NCBI GenBank assembly: GCA_027604005.1
Contig: JADGJT010000274.1
Span: 5,281 to 30,127, forward strand
Direction: 5' to 3'
From: Dinochytrium kinnereticum
Lineage: Eukaryota; Chytridiomycota; Chytridiomycetes; Chytridiales; Chytridiaceae
Length of the DNA: 24,847 bases
The notes beneath the pieces were generated by a model. That model saw nothing but the letters and a program-made list of their open reading frames with translations, was not told where the DNA came from and made no database searches. Position numbers and translations under genes: made by a program. Positions within the stretch are counted from its first letter, which is position 1, and every line of letters starts with the position of its first letter. Below are positions 3,781 through 24,847 of the stretch, piece by piece.

Positions 3781-6415
3781 TTAATTTCCCACAGGCATCA
3801 AAGAAGGCAATCCACTCCTAACACTTCCCCTAGTCAACATCGTAGCATAACTAGATCTAGTCCAAGTACTTGGCGTGTATCTCCTCCCAATCCTCATCAA
3901 ACTCCTCACCCATCCATTCTCAGATCTAGCCCAACCCCCCTCCGCTCTAGCCTCCTTCATAACCCCAGAAGCCATCGCGACCCTCTCCTTATCAAACTCC
4001 CCAGCCATCAAAGCAAGCGCCTTGGCCGTCCCATCCTCGCTATCCGTAAGATCAGTGTCCATCAAACTCTTTGCCAAGAGTTTCGCAAGCAACGCCGCAT
4101 CCGTGAGCGCCAACCCCGCTCCCACAGATCCATGAGCCTGAGGAGCAACGAGATGCGCAGCGTCGCCAATCAGGATGACGCGACCAGGTTGATACGCATG
4201 TGAGAAGGTGTCCAGCGGGTCTTCCGAAAGATCCTCAACATCTTGACACGTCGTCAACGCAGGATCCGTCCTGGCCATCACAGCATGACAAGGGTGAGGT
4301 AACTCAACATTCTGAGCAAGCCGTAACGCGAGCGTCCTAATCTCATGACCGGTCAATGGAGCAGGTGGGGCAAACAAATTCGGCATCATCCCACTCCCCG
4401 GGAACGCCGAGTTCGGGATCGGTGAAAACGGTCCAGGGGCCATGGGAGACGACGGGGATGGGGGAGGGAGACTTCGGTGATGAATGCGGAGGTTGGTGGG
4501 TTTATCGGCCTCAAGCTTTTCGCGGAGAAGGCGTTGAAGGTCAGGATCTCCTGCAATGTTGCCACCATTTGCACCAGGGCCTGCGACGGTTCGACCGCGT
4601 CTGGGGGATCGGCGGGGGCTTCCTGGTGGAGAAGAGTCGGAGGATCCCTCACCGGTGGAGTTTTCCCATGTAGAGCTAGCGGGAGATTCACCGCCGTCAT
4701 CTCGGAAGGCCATGCGACGAAGATTTTCAATGACCTCGGTGTCGTCGTCGTCGTCTTCAGTGTTGAGGGTCTCTTCATCGTCAACCATGGTTGAAGCGCG
4801 GGAGGACTCGTCCTCTGGTTCAGAGTAGATGTTCATCATCCTCCTGCCAGAGGGGGCACCACCGCCCCACTTATCTTCAGGATTGGTGGTGTCAGTTTGG
4901 ATGCTTCCCAGTTTTTGAATCGCGCCAGGAGGTCCACCATGGAAGCTGAGGGTCGAGACGACGATAGACGAACGAGGGTTCTTTGCAATAGCTTCTGAGA
5001 CCATCTTCCTCGTCTTGATCATGTTGAAGGTCTCAACGTGCTGGTTGGGCTCGGCCTGAGCCACGACGAGATTCCAACCAAGAATCCCATTCCCAAGGTT
5101 GGTAAGTCCAAAGCTGAGACCCTTTGCCACCACCGAGACAGACCTTCCGTCGGGGCAAAACTCGTGAACATGGTCACGGTGAAGGTCTTCAATGGGTTTT
5201 CCGTTCTCCATAGCATCAGGGGTATCAACAGGAGGAACAACAAGCCTCGTGATACCAGACATGATGAACGCCCCCGCGTGGGTGGTGGCGTGCCTCTTCT
5301 TGTTGGAGAGGAGGCCTCGAACCTTGGACTGCGCACCATCAGCGCCAACAAGCACATCCGCCTCCTCGATCCTCCCGCTTTCAAAAACTGCAGTCACCTT
5401 CCCAGTGGCAGGATGAACAGAGAAGGACTCAAGCTTCTCGCCGAGGCAGAGCTCGGGGACGAGGTACTTGAAATTCTCAGTCTCGAACCAAGCCCCACAA
5501 GCCAAGTCAGCCTCCAACCCATGAACAGGCTCAGGGGCAAGGTCGCTGTTGTTGGCAGGGAACGGGAGGAAGTCGTCACCAAAGACAAGGTCGTCCCTCA
5601 CTCCTGACAATGCAATGAGGAGCAGTCGTACCAGATCACATCGCCTCGTGGCGACCATAGGCGGAAGAGCAGAATCGACGCCAAGGGCCTCCTCAACAGA
5701 CGCGGAGGTCGCGCCAAGCTCAGCAGTGGTCGGGGGCCATTGAACGAGGTCGTCCTGGGTTTCTGCATCGATGGACTGTGTTTTTTTTCGTGTCGTGATT
5801 TTTAAGGGGCAGAAGACACAAATTGTTAGCATTTTCGATCAGGGGGCTGGTGAGGAAAACAAAGCGCCAGATTGATGGCGGCACCGCGGTCATCGACGGA
5901 TCACACAACCAAAATGGATGGCCGTCATCATCTCCACCGAGGCAGCAGCATATCCAAGAAAAACAAAAAAACAAGATGAAATAAAATGAGGAGGTACTTA
6001 CGCTAAACCTGAGAATAGGAGCAGCAATGCGGCTCAGCTTCCCTCCAAGCCCCATCTCAATCAAAATATCCACAGCCCACCTCCAAAGAACATAATGCGG
6101 CCCAGCTTCATTATAATCCGCCTCGGTTCTCTCATCAAAGATGACCGTCTCCAGGTTTAATCCAGTCGATCGTCCAACCCTCTTCAACGCAAGAGCCAGC
6201 GCAAGGCCAGCCAAACCACCTCCAACGATTAAGATCTTCTTTGGAGGATTCGCACCCTGCTGGTGCGTCTGCTCGGATCCAGGCATGGCGTTGAAGTCTG
6301 TGTTAGTGGTGGCTTCAGAGGCTTGATCGTCAAAGTCGGTTGTGGTTGTGTTGGTGAGATATGGCGTTGCTGATGGGTCTGAGAGTGCTTCGGTGTTTGC
6401 AGAGTACGATGACAT
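3781..6415 (-). CDS. FAD-dependent monooxygenase (class A, PHBH-like) with disordered insert
   Basis: Exons 6415-6002 and 5775-3781 are joined by a phase 0 intron (GTAAGT to ACACAG) and give 802 residues. Family knowledge: these flavoproteins use NAD(P)H and O2 to hydroxylate or epoxidise small, often aromatic substrates. Seen: the Rossmann motif ILIVGGGLAG (about 61-70), an ATRRCDL segment with the usual Arg (about 182), the DG motif VLVGADGAQ (about 279-287), and the second FAD motif ILIGDAAH with GD at about 675-676. The N-terminal 58 residues are Ser/Thr-rich. Between the substrate half and the GD motif lies an unusual insert of about 180 residues (428-608), rich in Asp/Glu, Ser, Pro and Gly and with a SPRRSPRR stretch. 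The family is normally near 400-550 residues. No stop or clear splice sites interrupt the insert. The substrate is unknown. The gene is divergent from the FAS1 gene. Confidence 0.88.
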
Positions 6416-13432: not shown

Positions 13433-14497
13433 TAAATTTTAACGAAATGTAATTAATGATTATCATTGCATTATGTGTTTCTGGTGAACAGGAAACAGTG
13501 TGAAATGCGACGGAACTGCTGAAACCCGCTGGGTCGTCCCCCAAAGACAGCAGGACGCAGCTATCTGATTGGTTCCTCCATGGACACAGAGTGGTCCCAT
13601 CCAGGGCGCTGGGGGACTGAAATTTGGAAATTTAGCGCGGCTTGTGTTGCGTCGTGCATGGCCGTGTGACCTTTGACACGCCTTGTCTTTTTTTTCTTTC
13701 ACCCATGAACGCGCCGCTGGTTTCACGCGCATCACCTCACCCCACTTGCTGTGACGCACCACCACGCAAAGAAAGCTGTCGCTGCGAGGGACAATGCCAC
13801 CCCACCGAATGATGGGAAGAAGGAAAGGGGCGAGTTGTCAACCTCCCCCTCAACGTCAATGCATCCTTCTTGGCGTACAATCCATTCAACATGGTGCATA
13901 AATTCACTTGAACCGTTTTTTAGAATACTCGAATTAGCCAAGACCATCTGTCAAATGAAGCTGAGGGAGAAAGCAGTCTCCAACTCTGATGAAACTCGTT
14001 TGTCTGACTGCCTGGCTGACCGATTGACTGAATAACCAGAGCAAACAAAGAATCACAGCAAACAGTTCGGTTTCTCTGATGAACTGATCATCTTATCCGA
14101 GTTCATATCCCCATTTTTCTCAAACCAATTTGACTGATGAGACAAATACTGTGATGTGAATAACTAAAAATTGAAATACATCTTCGAGTTCTCTTTGATA
14201 AAGTATGCAGTATTCACATTGAGAAATAAAATAGATAGTTGCGGTACAAGTCAACCAGACTACAATCGAGAATTAATGAGGCTAGCGTAAAACCCGTTTA
14301 AATAAAGTGGGGGTTGGGGGGTTGGGGGGGTGAGACTTTAACTACTATATACACTTCACCCCCTACATAACAAACGACCATCCTTCTCCACCCTTTTAAC
14401 CTCGATGCAAAAAAAAAAAAAAAGAAAAAGAAAAAATAAATACGCACACGCTTCCTCTTCCGCAACCGAAAAAGTAAGGGAAAGAAAAAGAGTTGAA

Positions 14498-17119
14498 TCA
14501 AACCGGCACATTCACTTTCCTCAACATCTTTTTAATCTTCACAAAATCGGGTCTAAAAGCCGGATCACTCGCCCAACAACAATCCACCAACTCCTTAAAC
14601 GAAGCCTCCCACCCCGCAGCCGGCACCAACGGTCTCTCTCCTCTCCCAACGGCCTCCACAATCCGTCTAAACGGAACGCTCTTCCAAGGCTTCTTCCGTG
14701 TAGCAATCTCCCACAAGATCACACCAAACGCATAGACATCCGATTTGGTGGTGGTTTGAACGTCTCGATTTGTCAGGTGCTCAGGGGCCATCCATTGCAA
14801 GGTGCCTCCTTGAGCGGCTTTGCGGGTCATCATCTTCGTGGGAAGCATGTTGGGGGATTGGGAGGCTTCGTCGTGGAGTGCGGTGGCGGTCGACATGCCT
14901 CCCATGGTGGAGGGTTGCATCTCGGGGGGTGTGGGTGGATCGTCTGCCTCGCTTCCCAGCATCTCGTTAAGCCAATTCCGTTCCTTGTCCCGAGCAATAC
15001 CGAAATCAGAGACCTTGACGGTCCAATCCTCACCAACGAGAAGATTTAAGCTTTTGAGGTCTTGATGAATGACTTGAGGTTTGCATCCGTGGAGGTAGCC
15101 CATCCCTTCTGCAACATCCATCAGGAAAGCCTTTTTCCGGTCCTTGTCAAGCGCGATCCTCGGATCCTCAAGCACCTGAAACACCGAACCTCTCGGCATA
15201 AACTCAGTGATGAGAAAGAAATTCGGCGACTGAACTCCAAACCCCATCATCGTGATCACGTTCCGATGCCTTAACGACATCAACATCGACACCTCATTCG
15301 AAAAGGACTGGATAGACTCCGCATCCACATCCTCCTCCCCCTCCTCCCCACCCTCCCGTCTCCCCCCAAAACTCGGCACAGTTCTAAAGTACTTGACAGC
15401 AACCGGAATCCCCATCCAAGCCGCTTTGAACACTTCAGACTCCTTACCGCTTCCTAGTATCTTTTCGAGAACGAGCTCGTTGGACCGGACTTTGATTTTG
15501 GTGGGGGATGGGTCTGCCACGAGGTTCAGAAATTTTTCGAGACCTCTTTGGACATCTTCGTCCAACGTTTGGATGTCCTCTCGACGACAGGCTAGGGCTT
15601 CGGCAAATGAGGCGTTAGGGTCTTTGGGGACGGCGTTGACTTGGTCTGTGCAGACAAACTAGGGTTTGGTAATGTTTTTTTTTTTGGGGGGGGGAGGTTC
15701 AAGTTTCCGTTAATGGAGGTACTTGTGTGTTAAGAAAGATCGTGCTGATAACTCCCTTCCCTCCGTTTCTCCCTATCTACAGAGAAGCCATAAAACTACA
15801 ACAAAAAGCCATGACGATAAAAAAAAACAAACCTTGTAAAGCATCTTCCCATTTTCCATGACCACAATCCCGGGACTCTGGGCATACAGACTTAAATCAG
15901 ACGGCGTGGGTCGAGAAGACCTCTGAAACCATTCTCTCCAAACAGCTCGGCTGGTTTCCGTGTAGGTCTTCATTCTTCGCCCGCCTCTCTTCACTTTCCG
16001 AAATTTGTTCAGGCCACCGCTTTTCAGCTGTTGAGTGATGTTTTTAGTTTGAGGATGGGGACGGAGGGAGGGGGAAGAGTTAGGTGTTTGGTCATGGCGA
16101 GGGTGCGGGACGGATGGGATCGCTTTCGACAAAGAGAATCGATGAATGTGGCGGAGCATTCATGGGTCCCCAACTCAACTCATCATCATGGCTCATGGAT
16201 TCGGGATATAGAAACAGAGCACGGAATCGCGCACACACATGCACGAGGCAACAACCCAAAAAGAAGGAAAACCCAAACTCCAACTAAAAAAAAAATTTAC
16301 GGAAGCAACTCACCCAAAACCTCAACTTTAACATTAAGGCCAAGCGCTGATAAGTCCAAAGCTGATTCCCGATTCCAAACACCCTATAAGCGTTCCTTCC
16401 GGGATCCAGGAACAAATCTCCAGGCAGCGCCCCAAGCTTGGTTCCAACCCCAACCTTCCGTCGAACCTCTTCCTCACGTTCGTCGGGACTCTGAAGCGTT
16501 CTCAACCAGTAAGCAAAGCTGCTGAGAAAGACTTGAACCTCGCTGAGGTTTTCATGGCAGGTGAGGAAGATGATGCGGGTGTTGGTGGCGGTGAGGATTG
16601 GGCGAAGATGGGCAAAGAGGACTATGTAGGAGAAGCTGTGTGATTTGTGTTGTTAGATGCTTGTTGAGGAGGGGATGTCATGTTATTATTATCGAGATAG
16701 TCGGGATGACGGTGGGTCGCTCAAACACCTCAGCCTGACCTCCGCCTCCCATCTCAGATCTCTTTTCCAGTCCGCTTCAAAAATAAAGCTTCCAAAAGAG
16801 ATATTTTCAATGGGTCGGAGGTGGGGGAAGGGTTCGAGCTGTCCCTCCGTCCGCTATCACAGCCTCAACAGACATCGAAAGATGGATGGAGGGATGGGAA
16901 GCTCATTTACCATGTCTGGCAATCAAACCGCCTCAAAAACACAATGACGAGCTTCTGATCCTTCCAAAAAGACGCCAACTTGACCTTCTCTCCCGTCATA
17001 TTAATCACCTCCAGACCCTCTGCCTGCAGAAGATCAAGTTTGAAAGCCGGCGCTTCTCCACCCTTCTTCTTTCCGTGCGCCTCCGCCTCTGGGCTGACCT
17101 TTGCCGCGGCAGCACGCAT
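14498..17119 (-). CDS. Peroxiredoxin-like 2 (AhpC/TSA_2) domain fused to TKL-type protein kinase, copy 1
   Basis: Exons 17119-16911, 16635-16314, 16027-15833 and 15658-14498; 628 residues with consistent phases. The ATG at 17119 is the first after an in-frame TGA at 17135-17137. N-terminal half (about 30-265) is a thioredoxin-fold PRXL2/AAED1-type domain: VIVFLRRFDC, a CXXC at Cys67/Cys70 (second Cys codon split by intron 1), IIFLTCHENL, PGDLFLDPGRNAYRVFGI (141-158) and SPGIVVMENGKML. C-terminal half (about 300-626) is a kinase: Gly-loop GSGKESEV (311-318), VAVK Lys331, Glu364, HQDLKSLN (440-447, Gln for the usual Arg), DFG 460-462 and APE 533-535. The 70-residue-long span between DFG and APE is about twice the usual and Pro/Ser/Met-rich. 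Only two halves of known families are seen; the redox-sensing role is inferred. No signal peptide or membrane helix. Confidence 0.88.
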
Positions 17120-17770
17120 GACGCAAAAAGTCTTTCAAATAAGGGAGAAAGCAAGGTGGACAAGAGCCTTTGTCGATCCATTGTAAACAATAATGTTACC
17201 AAGAGGGGGTTTAAAAGTGCACGGGTTGGGTTGATCCAGGATACCAAAGGTGGATTCCATTGTGCCAACAGCGCATCCTGATGCTCAGGGAGGGAGGATT
17301 TACGCATCCAGCAGCACGAAAAAAGCCCTGATGACTCGGCGTCATTGTGATTGATTGTGCGTGCAATGATTGACTGATATCACTCGTCTGTGGACGTACG
17401 ATGCCCCTCAGCACGCCGGCTGCCCACGTTGCCCACCCTGGCCTCATTCCTCCCTGCAGCCTCTCCGCCGCGACCGCGTGCGTGTGAGGCCATGACGCGA
17501 CAAGCATAACATTTCGTCAAAGACAGCAAGAAAGTGAGCCGTGCGTTGGGTTCGTTGCCCCTCCATGCGTCACACACGGGCGCATGGTCACAAACAAGCA
17601 TGGGTAGAAACCATCCTGCTGGTGTTGGGGTGGGGTGGATTGTAGGGGCAGCAGAGGGTTAAGGTTCGCACCACTCGATCGGAAGCAGTAGAAACCAGAT
17701 GCACGCACGCCCTCCAATTGGGATCATGAATCAAAAGGAGAAAATTTCATTCCAATGCACACACACACAT

Positions 17771-18018
17771 TATTAATTGTTACTATTAGATGTATATATA
17801 TATTATAATATATTTAATAATAATAATAATAAAATAAATTATTATTATCTGGTGAAAAGTCTTTTTTTTTTTTTTTTTTGGTTTTCAAACAGCACGCACC
17901 CCCCGCAATAAATAAATAAATGCATGTCCATATTATTATTATAATAGAATAATAATATGTAATTCTATAAGTATTATTGGTTTATTATTGAAATTATTTA
18001 TTTATTTATTTATTATTT
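17771..18018. repeat. A/T-rich microsatellite island (TA, TAA, TTTA units)
   Basis: Contains TA dinucleotides near 17790-17815, TAA/ATT trinucleotides near 17816-17850, an 18-base T run at 17862-17879 and TTTA tetranucleotides at about 17996-18015. It stands out sharply from the G/C-rich DNA on its left. Confidence 0.8.
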
Positions 18019-18067
18019 CTTTCACTGCTCTGGATAGCCCATCCCTTCCTTGCAGCCCTCCTCTCCC

Positions 18068-18073
18068 TATAAA
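18068..18073 (+). promoter_or_regulatory. Possible TATA box of the ATPase gene
   Basis: TATAAA lies 318 bases before the ATG, with a pyrimidine-rich leader between. CT-rich leaders are common in strongly expressed fungal genes. The long distance makes this tentative. Confidence 0.4.
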
Positions 18074-18121
18074 GAGGACAGATTGCCCCCGCAGGTGGGT
18101 GGGAAAGCGCTAAAAAAAACC

Positions 18122-18138
18122 CTCTCTCTCTCTCTCTC
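18122..18138. repeat. CT dinucleotide repeat
   Basis: Eight or more CT units in the probable 5' leader or core promoter of the ATPase gene. Confidence 0.85.
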
Positions 18139-18165
18139 GCTCTCATTTCCACCTCATCCCCCCTG

Positions 18166-18202
18166 CATCCATCCATCCATCCATCCATCCATCCATCCAT
18201 CC
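18166..18202. repeat. CATC tetranucleotide repeat
   Basis: About nine tandem CATC units, upstream of the ATPase start and within its probable 5' leader. Confidence 0.9.
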
Positions 18203-18385
18203 CTCCTTCCCACCTCATCAGCTTCATATCAGCCACTCTTCTCACTCACTCAACTCAACCAACAGCTCTTCAGCTTATCATCAATCTCTTGAACCTTTAG
18301 CACACATCATTGCCTTTCAAGGGACTACCATTTTCCCATTCAGCCTTTCCGCAACAAGACCAGCATCAATTCAACGGCAGGCAAA

Positions 18386-21300
18386 ATGAAAGCAAAGAAG
18401 ACCACTCGGCCCACAGCAGAGGCTCTACAGGCCGAGGCCCCTCTTCCTAGCTTCCACATGATGACCGCGGAGGACTCGGTCTCCTTTTACCAATCTGGTG
18501 AGAGCTACAGTCTCTTTTCTCTTTTTTTGGCAACTCCCCTCAGCCTCAGAAGAAAACGCACGGCAAACCTTTGTTTTGACGATCCCATTTTCTGACAACT
18601 GCAAATTTTTTTTTTCGGATTTCATTGACCACAGATGCCGACCTGGGACTCACCACCACCATCATTAACGAACGTCTCGAAAAATATGGCCCCAACGAGC
18701 TATTTGGAGACGCCGGAGTTTCCGTTTGGCGGGTTCTTTTCGCAAACACCTTCAATTCTATGAACGCTGTTCTTGTCACTGCCTTCATTGTAGGCATGGC
18801 AGTGCAGGATTGGATCAAGGCGGGTGTGCTTTTGCTGGTCATTTTGACCAACTCGGGGATTGGGTTTGCTCAGGAGTACAAGTCCGAGAAGACTATGGAT
18901 GCCCTAAGGAAAATGTCCTCGCCCACCGCCAGAGTTTTGAGGAACAGGGATTGGGAAGTTATCAACTCGGGGGACGTAGTCCCTGGAGATATTGTGTCTC
19001 TTGAGGAAGGCGTAAGTAGTAGTAATTTTAGTATTGTTTGATTATCCTCCCCAGCTCCCAATTGATTTTTATTTTTAACTTACTGAAACCTCTTTCCTTT
19101 TTCGACTCTTTCATAGGATGTTGTCCCCGCCGATATCAGACTCATAACCGCCGTTAACCTCGAAACCGATGAAGCCCTTTTGACAGGAGAAGCCCTTCCA
19201 ATTTCGAAGTTTGTCCGCCCTCTCCATGCGACTGGAACCGACGACGCCCTACTCCCTCTTGGTGACCGCAAAAACTGCGTTTACCGCAACACCACTGTCT
19301 GTAAGGGTCGCGGTGTCGGAGTTGTCTTTGCTACCGGCCTTCGTTCTGAAGTTGGAAAGATTGCCCGACTTGTTTCCGCGAAGAAGGAGGGAGGAGGCGT
19401 CACCGGTATTGCCAAGACCCCTCTGCAAAAGTCTTTGGACAAGATGATGTTCTTCTGCCTTGCCGCCGCCATTCTCCTCGGAGTTGTGGTGTTTGCTGTC
19501 AACAGGTTCAGGTGGGACATTGATATCTTCCTATACGCCATTGCAGTTGGTATTGCTATTCTTCCTGAGGGCTTGCCGGCTGTCGTCACTGTTAGTATGG
19601 CCGTGGGGCTGAAAAGGATGTCGGAGCAGAAGGCTATCGTTCGTCGACTTGCGGCTTTAGAGGCTGTTGGTCAGGTGACCAACATCTGCTCAGACAAGAC
19701 TGGAACTCTTACTGAAGGGAAAATGTGAGTTATTTGATGGCGTTTTTTTTCCCAGTTTTTTTTTTAATTTGTTTGGCATATGTCTGATGTTTATTGTTTT
19801 TAAGGGTTCTTAAATCTGGATGGTTCGCGGGAAAGTTCTACAATGTTGGTGGAAGGGCTTTGGAGCCTATCGGCGATATTGTTGAGTGCCAGTCTGCTGA
19901 TACTTCCGAAACTGGAGAGACCCTCACCACCGAATCAGCTGCTGAACGCTCTACTCTAGGTACTTGTATTTTCTCGATTGATCGAGTTACTTACTTAATT
20001 ACCTTTGCCATTCAGATCAAGGATTGTGTGTTGCCTCTCTCTGCATTACCTCCTCCCTTTCATATGATGACGAGGACAAGCGATGGAAGGCCACCGGTGA
20101 TCCCACCGAGGTCGCTCTTCAGGTTTTCGCCGCCAAGTTGGGTTACGACAAGAAGAGGTAAGACTCTCCCTTCCTCACTTGCTGGCTTGCAACCTTTCCA
20201 TATTTCCATTGCTTACGCCGTCCTTTTTTTTTTAACAATGTAAAAGTATGGCGGCACGAGGATATAACTTTGTCGCCGAATTTCCTTTTGACTCCAACGT
20301 GAAGAGGATGACAGTCGTCTACGAACAATCTGACAAGAACCTCCGCTACTTTGCTAAAGGAGCCGTCGAGCGCCTTATGGAGAGATGCGTTTCCTTTGCT
20401 AATGAGAACGGTGAGGTGGTTCCCCTCACCGATGCATTCCAGGCCAAAGCCATTGAAATTATGGAGGAATTTGCCGGTCGTGGCATGCGTGTCCTCGCTT
20501 TGGCCACCAAGGTGACACCTCCTCGTGATGAGAAGATTAGCACTGCTGAGTTTACTGAAGGCCCTTCCGCTGGAACTCGTGAGGAGGCTGAATCAAGCTT
20601 GACGTTCCTTGGTCTTGTCGCCATCTACGATCCTCCCCGGCCCGAGTCTCTGCCCTCCGTTCAGGAATGCCACCGCGCAGGAATCGTTGTCCACATGGCC
20701 ACCGGTGATCACCCCAAGACTGCTGAGGCTATCGCCAGGGAGGTTGGGATTTTGAGTTACTCAGACAGGCCTGGAGCACCGTTGGTTTTGACTGCCGCGC
20801 AGTTTGATGCCATGTCGGATAAAGAGGTGGATGACCTCGCTGAACTTCCTAGGGTTCTTGCTAGGTGCAGTCCCGAGTCGAAAGTTAGGCTTGTTGCTGC
20901 TCTTCACAGGAGGAAGAAGTACGTTGCCATGACTGGAGACGGTGTGAACGACGCCCCCGCTGTCCGTCAATCTGATATCGGCATTGCTATGGGTCTTGGA
21001 GGCTCTGACGTCACCAAGCAGGCTTCAGCGATCACCCTTACCGACGACAACTTCAAGACCATTCTGGTGGCTGTGAGGGAAGGCAGGAGGTTATTTGCGA
21101 ACTCGACCATCATCGCCCTTCACCTTCTCTCGGGGAACGTTTCGGAGGTTGTGGCTCTTGTAGTTGGTCTTGCCATTCGTGACAGCGCCGGCAACTCGGT
21201 CTTCCCCATGTCTGCCATTCAAATTCTCTGGCTCAATATGGTTACCTCATCCCCCGTCGCCCTTGCTCTCGGTCTCGAACTCGCCCCTAAAGACATTATG

Positions 21301-22005
21301 AACTACCCTCCTCGCTCCGTTGATTCCAAGATCTGGACAAAGGAGTTTATTATCGACAACCTCTTTTACGGTCTCACCATGGGAAGTCTTTCGCTTAGCT
21401 CGTTCATTCTTCAGGCGTCTGTTCAGTTGAAGGGCATGGATTCCCTGCCTACAGGGTGTAACAAGTCTTACAGGGAAGAATGCAATCCAACTTTTGCGGC
21501 CCGTGGAATGGCGTTCTACTCTCTTTCACTTCTGCTTCTGCTTCACGGATTCAATTGCAGGCACACCAGGCTGTCAATGTTCAACCGCAACCAGGTTCAA
21601 AACAAGTACCTTTGGGGTGCCGTCCTTCTTGGTCTTTGCATTACCATACCTTCGGCCTACATTCCTGTGGTCGACACTGCCGTTTTCAACCAGACTGGCT
21701 TCAGGTTTGTATCTGATCTGCTTTGCGCGTTTCTTTCTTTCTTTTAGATGAGCCGTTCTCTTTGTGTTTTCGAGCATAAACTAAAATATTTCATCTTTTC
21801 CTTTCTTGTAATCAGCTGGGGCTGGGGCTACATTATTGGTCAGCTTTTCTTCTTTGTCGCGATCTCTGAGCTGTATAAGCTTTTCAAGCGTAACGTCTGG
21901 TTCAGGAACGAGGTCAACCAGATGGTGTCTGATCCAGAGACTGGCTTTATGAAGGCAACCACTGTTGAAGACGGGAGCGTCTCTGACCTTGTCAAGAAGT
22001 CTTAA
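18386..22005 (+). CDS. ENA: P-type cation ATPase, ENA-type (subfamily IID, Na+/K+ export)
   Basis: Seven exons: 18386-18497, 18635-19011, 19117-19724, 19805-19959, 20016-20157, 20247-21704 and 21816-22005; 1013 residues. Family knowledge: ENA pumps use ATP to export Na+ or K+ across the plasma membrane. Seen: actuator motif TGEALP (186-191), TM4 PEGLP (313-317), phosphorylation motif DKTGT with Asp356 (SDKTGTLTEGKMV formed across a splice), GDPTEVALQVF, nucleotide-site KGA (502-504), DPPRPE (593-598) and hinge TGDGVNDAP (694-702). Six C-terminal membrane helices follow. ENA features include QEYKSEKTMDAL, the SSPTARVLRN segment, FPFDSNVKRM and the GCNKSYREEC loop near TM7-8. PEGLP in TM4 is also shared with Ca2+ and Na+/K+ pumps, so ion choice is uncertain; IIA is the main alternative. 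ATG context (AAAATG) is good. Peculiarity: it sits between two paralogous fusion kinases on the opposite strand. Confidence 0.92.
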
Positions 22006-22584
22006 AGAGCTATTCAAGTAACCGTCTCTAGCTTCTCAGTCCATTTTTTTTTATACACTGTTTTGTCCCTCTTATGAGAACCATGTTATTGCGATCCACC
22101 TCACTTTCCTTTGCATTAATCCCTTCTTTTAAGACCTTTCCAGTCTTGCCCGTTGCTTGTTTATTTTTTCCTTTTTTGATTTTCCTATGCATGACCTTGC
22201 AGTTTGGGTCCACCTCTCCGTTTGTTTTTTTTCTCCTTTTTTTTTATTTAGCCGTCATAGATAGTATGACTCTTTTTTGCACTCATTGCCGCCTTTTTCT
22301 TTATCCCTTTTTGGGTTTTGTTTTTCTTCTGGTAGCTCGGCTTTTTGGCTGCCTTTTTGTTTTGTTTGTTTGTTTTTAATTTGTTTGTGGTGCGGGAGTT
22401 GTTGTCAACCCCCTTTTTTTTATATATTATTTTTCTGGGAACCGTGAATGAAAAGCTTCTTTGACAATTTTAAACGACTGTGCTTGCTTTTTTTTTATTA
22501 ATACTTGTTTATTCCACTGTGGGTGTTAGTTAGTGTTGACTTTTTTTAAACGTGATCAGTTTGGAGGGTGTGAACGAAGTATGA

Positions 22585-22590
22585 AATAAA
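22585..22590 (+). promoter_or_regulatory. Possible poly(A) signal of the ATPase gene
   Basis: AATAAA in an A-rich stretch 580 bases after the stop. It is the first clear hexamer on this strand, but the 3' UTR would be long. Confidence 0.35.
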
Positions 22591-22767
22591 TAAAATGTGA
22601 TGATGTATCCTCCCGTAAACTATCACATAGCTTTTAGTTCGAAGACGGCTTCCTGCATGCATGGTGGCCTTACGCATTAACACCGTTCTGAGGGAATCAA
22701 TAGCTTGACCAAAAAACACTTGAAATAGAAAATGAACCTTTCAGCAACCTAACATACATACAAGCTC

Positions 22768-22773
22768 TTTATT
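22768..22773 (-). promoter_or_regulatory. Poly(A) signal of fusion kinase 2
   Basis: TTTATT on the plus strand reads AATAAA on the minus strand, 25 bases past the kinase stop codon. Confidence 0.5.
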
Positions 22774-22798
22774 TTCACGACGCTCTTGATTCAAACAT

Positions 22799-24847
22799 TC
22801 AATCCACCGGCACAACAATGTTTGGAAGGTCCTTCAAGATCTTTGCAAATTCCGGTCTCGTCTTTGGGTTCTGCGCCCAACACGTCTCAACGAGCCTCTC
22901 AAACGGCTTGCCCCATCCAAACGCCGGAAACGACAACCTCTTCCCCTCAATGACATTCTGCTGTATGGTCTTGTGCGGGACACCTTTCCATGGAACCTTC
23001 CTCGTCGCCACTTCCCACATCACAACCGCAAAGGCAAACACATCCATCTTGGTTGTGGGACGTTGAGCGCGGATTTGCTCAGGAGACATCCATTGAACCG
23101 TTCCACCATGAGCGTCGTCGTCGTCGTCGTCGTCATCGTCATCGTCATCATCATCGACATTCCTACGTCGTTTTCGGGTCTGCATTCTCAGGGCTCGAGC
23201 GATCCCGAAATCAGATACCTTGACTGTCCAGTCCTCCGCAACCAGGATGTTGAGACTCTTTAGATCTTGGTGGATGATTTTGGGGGTGCATCGATGGAGG
23301 AACGCCATCCCACTTGCCGTGCCACTCAACAGGCAGTGACGCGTCTTGGCGTCGAGGACGGTTGAAGCGTTGCTGAGAATGCTGAAAAGGGAGCCTCGGG
23401 ACATGAGCTCGGTGATGAGGAAATGACGGGGAGGTCTGTTTCCGAATCCGACGAAAGGGATGACGTTGATGTGACGGAGTGACATGAGGATGGCGGCTTC
23501 ATTCGCAAATGATTTCAACCCCTCGCTGACCCTTGTCGGGGCGTACCCCCCCCCCCCATCAAAGGAAGTGGGAGTGGTGATGTTCCTCTCATCAAGATCA
23601 CCCTCTTCCGAGTCATCGAGTTTGAAGAATTTGACGGCGACCTTCATGCCCATCCAGTTGCAGCTGTAGACCTCGGATTCGCGACCGTGGCCTAGTTTTT
23701 GGAGGATGGTGATGTCGTCGGCGTGAACGTCACCCGATTCTCTCATGTTGTCGAGGGTCTTGGCAAAGACTCGAAGCCCTTCGTTGACTCTTTGATCGAG
23801 AAGATCGGTTTCGGGGATTGGGCACATCAGGGCTTCGGCCAGTTTACCGTTGGATGTGTTGGGGATGGTTTTGTTTTGGTCGTCACAGATGAACTTTTTT
23901 ACTTGTGGTTAGATTCATGTGATGCTCGAGGCGGGGGGGGCTGGGGGTGGGGCTTCTTTTTTCTTCTTCTCTCTCTTCTTCTTTGGTCATCGCTAAGGCA
24001 GAAAAAAGAATGATGAGGAAAAAAAAGAACCTACCCTGTAAAGAACTTTATCCTTTTCGACAACGACAATACCTGGACTTTGTTTCCAAATACTCATGTC
24101 CCCTCTTTTAAACATTCTGGCAGTGGCCCCCCAAATCCGGCGACGAGAGTCCATGTAAAGAGTTCTTCTCCCCACGCGGTCAACGTTCCGCGGTGGTTTC
24201 TTGTCCAAGAGACCCGTTATGAACTGTGGGAGATGAATGTGATCAGGACATGTTGGAGGGAGAGTGGGACTGTAGAATGAGACAAAGAAGAGGGGAGGTG
24301 GAGCAATGAAAACAAAAACGAAGTGGGAAGGATAACAGAACCCTTCCATCCACATACAAAACCACACGAAAAAAAAAAGGGGGGGGTAAAGCAATAACTA
24401 AAGGAAATAAAAAAAAAAACAAAACAAAACAAGACAAAACCCCCCTCCACAAATCCTCACTCACCCAATAAGTACACATCCAAATAATCAATCTATTCTG
24501 ACTTTTCTTAAGCTGTCCGGTGATCCCAAAAAACCGATAAGCAACCCTCCCAGGATCCATGTAAAGCTCTCCAGGCATCGCCCCGGAGGTCGCCTCCCCA
24601 TCCTCCTCCAAACCGTTCGCATTGCAGTTCTCCAATTGCTGAAGCTTTCGAAGCCAAAACCCAAAGGAGACGAGAAAGGTGTTGACTTCCGAGAGGTCTG
24701 TGTGGCAGGTTAGGAAGACCAGTCGGATGTTGCTCTTTTTGAGGATTGGGCGTAGGTGCGCAAAGAGGATTATGTATGTTAGGCTTTTTGGGGGGAGGGG
24801 GGGAGGGCGGTGAAGGGTTAGAGAATGTTTGTTTTTTTTTTGGGGGG
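22799..24847 (-). CDS. Peroxiredoxin-like 2 domain fused to TKL-type kinase, copy 2 (5' partial)
   Basis: Visible exons 24783-24465, 24223-24035 and 23893-22799 give 533 residues plus one base completing a split codon. Bases 24784-24847 are intron, and the first exon is off the window. The same architecture as copy 1 is seen: FAHLRPIL, LVFLTCHTDL, PGELYMDPGRVAYRFFGI and SPGIVVVEKDKVLYRF (thioredoxin-fold half), then a kinase with Gly-loop GHGRESEV, VAVKFF, HQDLKSLN, DFGIAR and SPE for APE. All three shared introns match copy 1 in place and phase, and the first exon's C completes the second Cys of CXXC. The activation segment carries KRRR followed by 14 Asp. The acceptor at 23894 has a weak A-rich run but a CTAAC branch-like motif just upstream. 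Same inferred role as copy 1; the N-terminal half of the redox site is unseen. Confidence 0.84.
23114..23155 (-). repeat. GAY (Asp) trinucleotide repeat inside kinase 2
   Basis: Fourteen GAC/GAT codons in tandem on the coding strand encode poly-Asp in the kinase activation segment. Mixed GAC and GAT codons interrupt perfect repetition. Confidence 0.95.
23546..23557. repeat. 12-base C run inside kinase 2 exon
   Basis: Twelve C on the plus strand, read as GGG codons (four Gly) in the minus-strand kinase, in a loop between the VAVK and alpha-C regions. A single-base length error here would shift the frame; the frame is intact as given. Confidence 0.85.

What the first reader, a model, noticed from the sequence alone, without database searches (positions are those of the whole stretch)
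14498..17119. Peroxiredoxin-like 2 domain fused to a protein kinase: a possible direct redox-sensing kinase
Seen: one gene model with consistent splice phases joins a PRXL2/AAED1-type thioredoxin-fold domain (CXXC at residues 67-70, DPGR motif, closing beta-hairpin SPGIVV) to a TKL-like kinase domain with no stop between. Established: PRXL2 proteins are normally stand-alone and redox-active, and TKL kinases usually carry other sensory domains. Inference: the redox state of CXXC could gate kinase output. I do not know of a described PRXL2-kinase fusion, but I could not search.
Basis: partly seen in the sequence, partly recalled or inferred. Interest (0 to 1): 0.85.

Follow-up and report, generated by a model that had tools for sequence, protein, structure and literature searches.

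The report
Chytrid kinase with built-in peroxiredoxin-like domain
A family of protein kinases in some chytrid fungi carries, in the same protein, a thioredoxin-like domain of the peroxiredoxin-like 2 type with a conserved pair of cysteines, so these kinases may sense oxidants directly, though that has not been tested.

Summary
The fusion is real. The minus-strand gene at 14498-17119 (four exons) encodes 628 aa, identical over its whole length to an annotated Dinochytrium kinnereticum protein. Residues ~30-270 form a PRXL2-type thioredoxin fold. The family's nearest solved structure, by sequence profile and by fold, is human PRXL2B (prostamide/PGF synthase). The rest is a Raf/CTR1-like TKL kinase. 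The last exon encodes both the end of the PRXL2 fold and the whole kinase, so two separate genes are very unlikely even without RNA data. The searches gave 18 proteins from 9 named chytrid taxa; 17 carry the kinase and one is a fragment. A second copy lies in this window at 22799-24783, with matching intron places. CXXC is kept in 17 of 17 rows that have that region, and the HRD arginine is missing in 15 of 15. Literature searches, several with capped listings, showed no such fusion. That the CXXC state gates the kinase is inference (about 0.5); direction, substrate and oxidant are unknown.

The parts
16911..17119 (-). Exon 1 of focal gene (residues 1-69 plus two bases of codon 70): N-terminal tail, first strands of PRXL2 fold, first Cys of CXXC
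   Evidence: protein identical to P0002
16636..16910 (-). Intron 1, phase 2, splits the codon of C70 (second Cys of CXXC); GTAAAT..ACACAG
   Evidence: acceptor at same place and phase in the second copy, whose donor lies beyond the contig end
16314..16635 (-). Exon 2 (residues 70-177): C70, helix after CXXC, C96, DPGR
16028..16313 (-). Intron 2, phase 0; GTGAGT..CAACAG
15833..16027 (-). Exon 3 (residues 178-242): variable helical insert, then QSPGIVV / KMLYK beta-hairpin
15659..15832 (-). Intron 3, phase 0, lies inside the PRXL2 fold; GTTTGT..CCCTAG
   Evidence: same residue in second copy
14498..15658 (-). Exon 4 (residues 243-628 and stop): last part of PRXL2 fold with C266, helical linker, whole Raf-like TKL kinase with HQD in place of HRD and an insert in the activation segment
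22799..23893 (-). Second copy, exon 4: end of PRXL2 fold plus kinase (HQD)
24035..24223 (-). Second copy, exon 3
24465..24783 (-). Second copy, exon 2, starting in the codon for the second CXXC Cys; exon 1 lies beyond the contig end

Best explanation
It is a kinase family, found here only in chytrids, in which a PRXL2-type thioredoxin-fold domain is fused through a short helical linker to a Raf/CTR1-like, MAP3K-type TKL kinase. SHOWN by sequence and model: the fusion, its conservation, the CXXC at the thioredoxin-active-site position, two further invariant cysteines (C96, C266), the intact ATP-binding and catalytic residues and the missing HRD arginine. INFERRED: the CXXC pair is oxidised by peroxide (or by a partner thiol protein) and re-reduced by thioredoxin; the change of the domain is passed through the linker to the kinase N-lobe and turns phosphorylation up or down. 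Because the kinase is non-RD, the usual control by activation-loop phosphorylation is probably weak, which leaves the fused domain as the natural regulator. Direction, oxidant and substrate are unknown.
Confidence: 0.5

Rival explanations
1. The PRXL2 domain is a working thiol reductase (as PRXL2B reduces prostaglandin endoperoxides, recalled) that acts on lipid or protein peroxides, and the kinase is tethered to put the enzyme in place or is itself the localiser; redox state does not gate kinase activity.
For: Invariant CXXC at the active-site position and nearest fold PRXL2B, an enzyme.
Against: A pure enzyme would gain nothing obvious from a kept kinase; 17 of 18 members carry the kinase and the two domains share history.
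Confidence: 0.22
2. The domain is a docking, dimer-forming or metal/disulfide-stabilised structural module; the four invariant Cys are structural, and the kinase is controlled by something else, such as dimerisation.
For: Two more invariant Cys beyond CXXC (C96, C266); Raf-type kinases are controlled by dimerisation (recalled).
Against: CXXC sits at the N-end of the first long helix after a strand, the catalytic site of thioredoxin folds.
Confidence: 0.22
3. The fusion is an artefact: two neighbouring genes joined by a wrong intron 3.
For: No RNA evidence could be used here; intron 3 has a weak donor (GTTTGT) and other in-frame junctions exist.
Against: Exon 4 alone holds the last conserved piece of the PRXL2 fold (Q248, A263, C266) and the kinase in one open frame; the structural match to PRXL2B runs past the junction and so does the weak third block of the profile match; the second copy has the intron at the same residue; 17 of 18 relatives have both parts.
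Confidence: 0.02

Closest known systems
PRXL2B (prostamide/prostaglandin F synthase), PDB 9us9/9usa, and the PRXL2/AhpC-TSA_2 family (PF13911)
   Same: Thioredoxin fold, CXXC at the same place, GELYLD..Y..(L)G and Q-S-(P/G)-G-(I/L) blocks in the same order
   Different: PRXL2B is a stand-alone 198-aa chain; here there is a helical insert before the last hairpin, two further invariant Cys (C96, C266) and a C-terminal kinase
Arabidopsis CTR1 / Raf-like MAP3K (TKL group), PDB 3ppz
   Same: Closest solved kinase by sequence (3.3e-48) and Foldseek; catalytic K, E, D, N and DFG Asp kept
   Different: HRD Arg replaced by Q/S/A/T in 15 of 15; long variable activation segment (26-92 residues from DFG to GT in 15 members); PRXL2 domain in N-terminal position
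PRXL2A acting on MAP kinase signalling in animal cells
   Same: PRXL2-type protein linked to a kinase pathway in an oxidation-dependent way, according to a review (PMC10812781, passages)
   Different: There two separate proteins; here one polypeptide
Tpx1-Sty1 and other peroxiredoxin-MAPK relays; ASK1-thioredoxin (recalled, not read up)
   Same: Thiol protein passes oxidant state to a stress kinase
   Different: Partners are separate proteins and a true peroxiredoxin or thioredoxin

Membership tests
PRXL2 / AhpC-TSA_2 (PF13911) | Match to the family profile | tested here: inconclusive
   Focal protein below cut-off (15.7 whole, 18.7 N-part, of 27 bits); 15 of 18 relatives match at E<=0.01, best 2.8e-10, the focal one not among them
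PRXL2 / AhpC-TSA_2 (PF13911) | Nearest solved structure is a PRXL2 protein | tested here: met
PRXL2 / AhpC-TSA_2 (PF13911) | CXXC at the N-end of the first long helix | tested here: met
   C67/C70 in 17 of 17 rows that have the region; C55/C58 of P0014 at start of helix 56-74 after strand 45-49
PRXL2 / AhpC-TSA_2 (PF13911) | Stand-alone protein (usual architecture, recalled) | tested here: not met
   Kinase fused in 17 of 18
PRXL2 / AhpC-TSA_2 (PF13911) | Thiol reductase activity | not testable with these tools
   needs protein
Typical peroxiredoxin | P-x3-(T/S)-x2-C motif (recalled) | tested here: not met
   Residues 60-66 before C67 are VFLRRFD: no Pro or Thr/Ser at those places
TKL kinase (Raf/CTR1/MAP3K-like) | Closest kinases are TKL | tested here: met
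   CTR1 best by a wide margin; then EGFR, RIPK1, MLT/ZAK, DLK, CSK, MLK, ABL and BRAF mixed, so tyrosine kinases follow close behind (60 of 314 shown); CTR1 first by Foldseek; BRAF and CTR1 tie by VIA
TKL kinase (Raf/CTR1/MAP3K-like) | Catalytic residues intact | tested here: met
   beta-3 Lys, alpha-C Glu, catalytic-loop D/K/N and DFG Asp in all rows with letters
RD kinase | Arg in HRD | tested here: not met
   0 of 15 (Q 12, S 1, A 1, T 1); second copy in the window also HQD

The most novel reading that the evidence does not exclude
Chytridiales and relatives own a dedicated family of one-piece oxidant-sensing MAP3K-like kinases: a PRXL2 domain reads peroxide through its CXXC and directly switches a non-RD Raf-like kinase whose activation-loop control has been given up, with at least two diverged copies (A and B) kept since before Dinochytrium and Phlyctochytrium split.
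Probability: 0.42. Interest if true: 0.82.

Novelty: new variant of a known kind. Interest (0 to 1): 0.62.

Why it matters
Peroxide sensing by kinases is thought to work mostly through separate thiol proteins that hand oxidation on (recalled). A natural fusion of a PRXL2 domain to a kinase would let one test in a single purified protein how an oxidised thioredoxin fold changes a kinase. It would also bear on how separate PRXL2A influences MAP kinase signalling in animals. Kinases of early fungi are little studied, and two of these proteins carry a name that looks misleading ('copper transport protein ctr1').

Tried and rejected
Exon-wise family search of the own genome with PF13911 gave no match. 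I do not count this against the assignment: the domain is spread over exons, and the same kind of search with Redoxin PF08534 gave only one match, below cut-off.

Search for stand-alone relatives: the N-domain profile search (10 of the 13 proteins then known) found no stand-alone member, only four kinase-bearing proteins (P0006, P0009, P0012, P0014) and the 154-aa fragment P0015. It scored only the 7994 candidates sharing most words, and it missed at least P0010, P0016, P0017 and P0018 (518-581 aa, inside the 154-605 aa span of its hits), so absence of stand-alone relatives is not shown. The other two searches could return only proteins of about the length of the fusion.

Full-length structure (pLDDT 62, pTM 0.50) was too weak to read the domain interface, and its fold searches were filled by kinases. 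I therefore modelled the short member P0014.

Two-gene artefact: rejected (see rivals). Recent duplication: no long DNA repeat between the two copies in 14200-24847 (only a T-rich low-complexity family was listed); the copies are 42% (N-domain, 212 columns) and 47% (kinase, 289 columns) identical.

Literature: seven searches were aimed at the fusion, the organism or chytrid kinases and three at context. None of the listings shows such a fusion, but the listings (20 of 43; 20 of 29; 12 of 57) were capped and the library lacks most subscription papers. I read passages only of PMC3281104, PMC3091736, PMC10812781 and PMC2837644; all other papers I saw as listings. PMC3091736 treats another peroxiredoxin-like family (P-DUDES). 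PMC2837644 lists AhpC-TSA and Pkinase in one table cell among catalytic domains, in a section on domains associated with FYVE/PX.

Rows dropped: the trees left out P0014 (partial kinase) and P0015 (fragment) and added the second copy of the window; deeper branches differ between the two trees, so they do not show the order of duplications. The invariance count left out P0015, and P0018 up to residue 70 (its model seems to lack exon 1). In one search P0018 shows a gap at C67 and S at C70 for the same reason.

Full report
What is there. The minus-strand gene at 14498-17119 has four exons (16911-17119, 16314-16635, 15833-16027, 14498-15658) that join in phase into 628 aa. A search with the N-terminal 292 residues against 5.8 billion proteins returned an annotated protein of Dinochytrium kinnereticum (P0002) whose 628 residues equal the model, so the window is from that chytrid (Chytridiales) or a twin of it. 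The annotation may be computed without RNA, so it is not proof of the transcript.

Is it one gene? Very probably, on sequence alone. The main point is that intron 3 lies inside the PRXL2 fold. Exon 4, a single open frame, starts with the last piece of that fold (FVCTDQ...ALAC, with invariant Q248, A263 and C266) and runs on into the whole kinase. The structural match of a relative to PRXL2B runs to model residue 234, about 25 residues past the matching point; the third block of the profile match also crosses the junction, though it is weak by itself (2.0 bits). The window holds a second copy at 22799-24783 (minus): introns 2 and 3 lie at the same residues and phases, intron 1 has its acceptor at the same place, and exon 1 lies beyond the contig end.

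Distribution. Three searches gave 18 proteins: 13, two more (P0014, P0015) and three more (P0016-P0018). They come from Dinochytrium, Phlyctochytrium planicorne and P. bullatum, Chytridium lagenaria, Irineochytrium, Zopfochytrium, Chytridiales sp. JEL 0842, Blyttiomyces and Cladochytrium tenue: nine named taxa. Five were looked up: three Chytridiales, one Cladochytriales, one unplaced in Chytridiomycetes. Seventeen carry the kinase; the other, P0015, is a 154-aa fragment identical to the focal protein over 60 residues around CXXC. Trees of the two domains share 6 of 14 splits, and their distances correlate (0.72, 0 of 2000 permutations, 17 sequences), as expected if the domains travelled together, though common species history adds to this. 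Copy A (Dinochytrium, both Phlyctochytrium) is well supported in both trees; copy B (the same plus Chytridium) in the N-domain tree (0.989) but not in the kinase tree (0.18). In both Phlyctochytrium species and in Chytridium the A and B proteins show the same longest-contig length (64705, 24061 and 513466), which suggests that they sit on one contig; I did not check positions.

How it may work. Four cysteines of the N-domain never change (C67, C70, C96, C266), more than the domain's overall conservation would give (hypergeometric 0.0013; related sequences, so a rough guide). With an intact kinase that lacks the arginine used for activation-loop control, the simplest reading is a kinase read-out of the redox state of the CXXC pair. 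[quoted passage not shown] None of this shows coupling inside the chytrid protein; the full-length model is too weak. I put redox gating at about one half, with a working reductase and a docking module as the main rivals.

Novelty. The parts are known, the combination appears not to be described: seven literature searches aimed at it listed no PRXL2-kinase fusion, within an open-access library and with three capped listings. I file it as a new variant of a known kind: a TKL kinase with a new kind of candidate sensory domain.

Noticed in passing
22799-24783 (minus): Second PRXL2-kinase gene in the same window, cut by the contig end; a long run of Asp in its activation segment.
   Followed up: yes
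about 19117-21747 (plus): P-type cation ATPase lies between the two fusion genes (E1-E2_ATPase, Cation_ATPase_C).
   Followed up: partly
P0001, P0007: Both are named 'copper transport protein ctr1' in the source; likely a mix-up with the kinase CTR1, the closest solved kinase (inference). P0001 is also two head-to-tail units in one model, with part of the first kinase missing.
   Followed up: partly
G000:C221:1306-21522: Row of six kinase matches on one strand within about 20 kb, five with HRD: a likely tandem array of TKL-like kinases.
   Followed up: no
P0005 (Irineochytrium): Gene model carries GST domains in front of the PRXL2-kinase; possibly a joined neighbour.
   Followed up: no
16636-16910 (minus) and upstream of 24783: Intron 1 splits the codon of the second CXXC cysteine in the focal gene, and the second copy has the acceptor at the same place; the Zopfochytrium model P0018 seems to have lost exon 1 at this point.
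   Followed up: partly
3784-5838 (minus): Long frame with an FAD_binding_3 match, probably a monooxygenase-type gene; not part of the finding.
   Followed up: no
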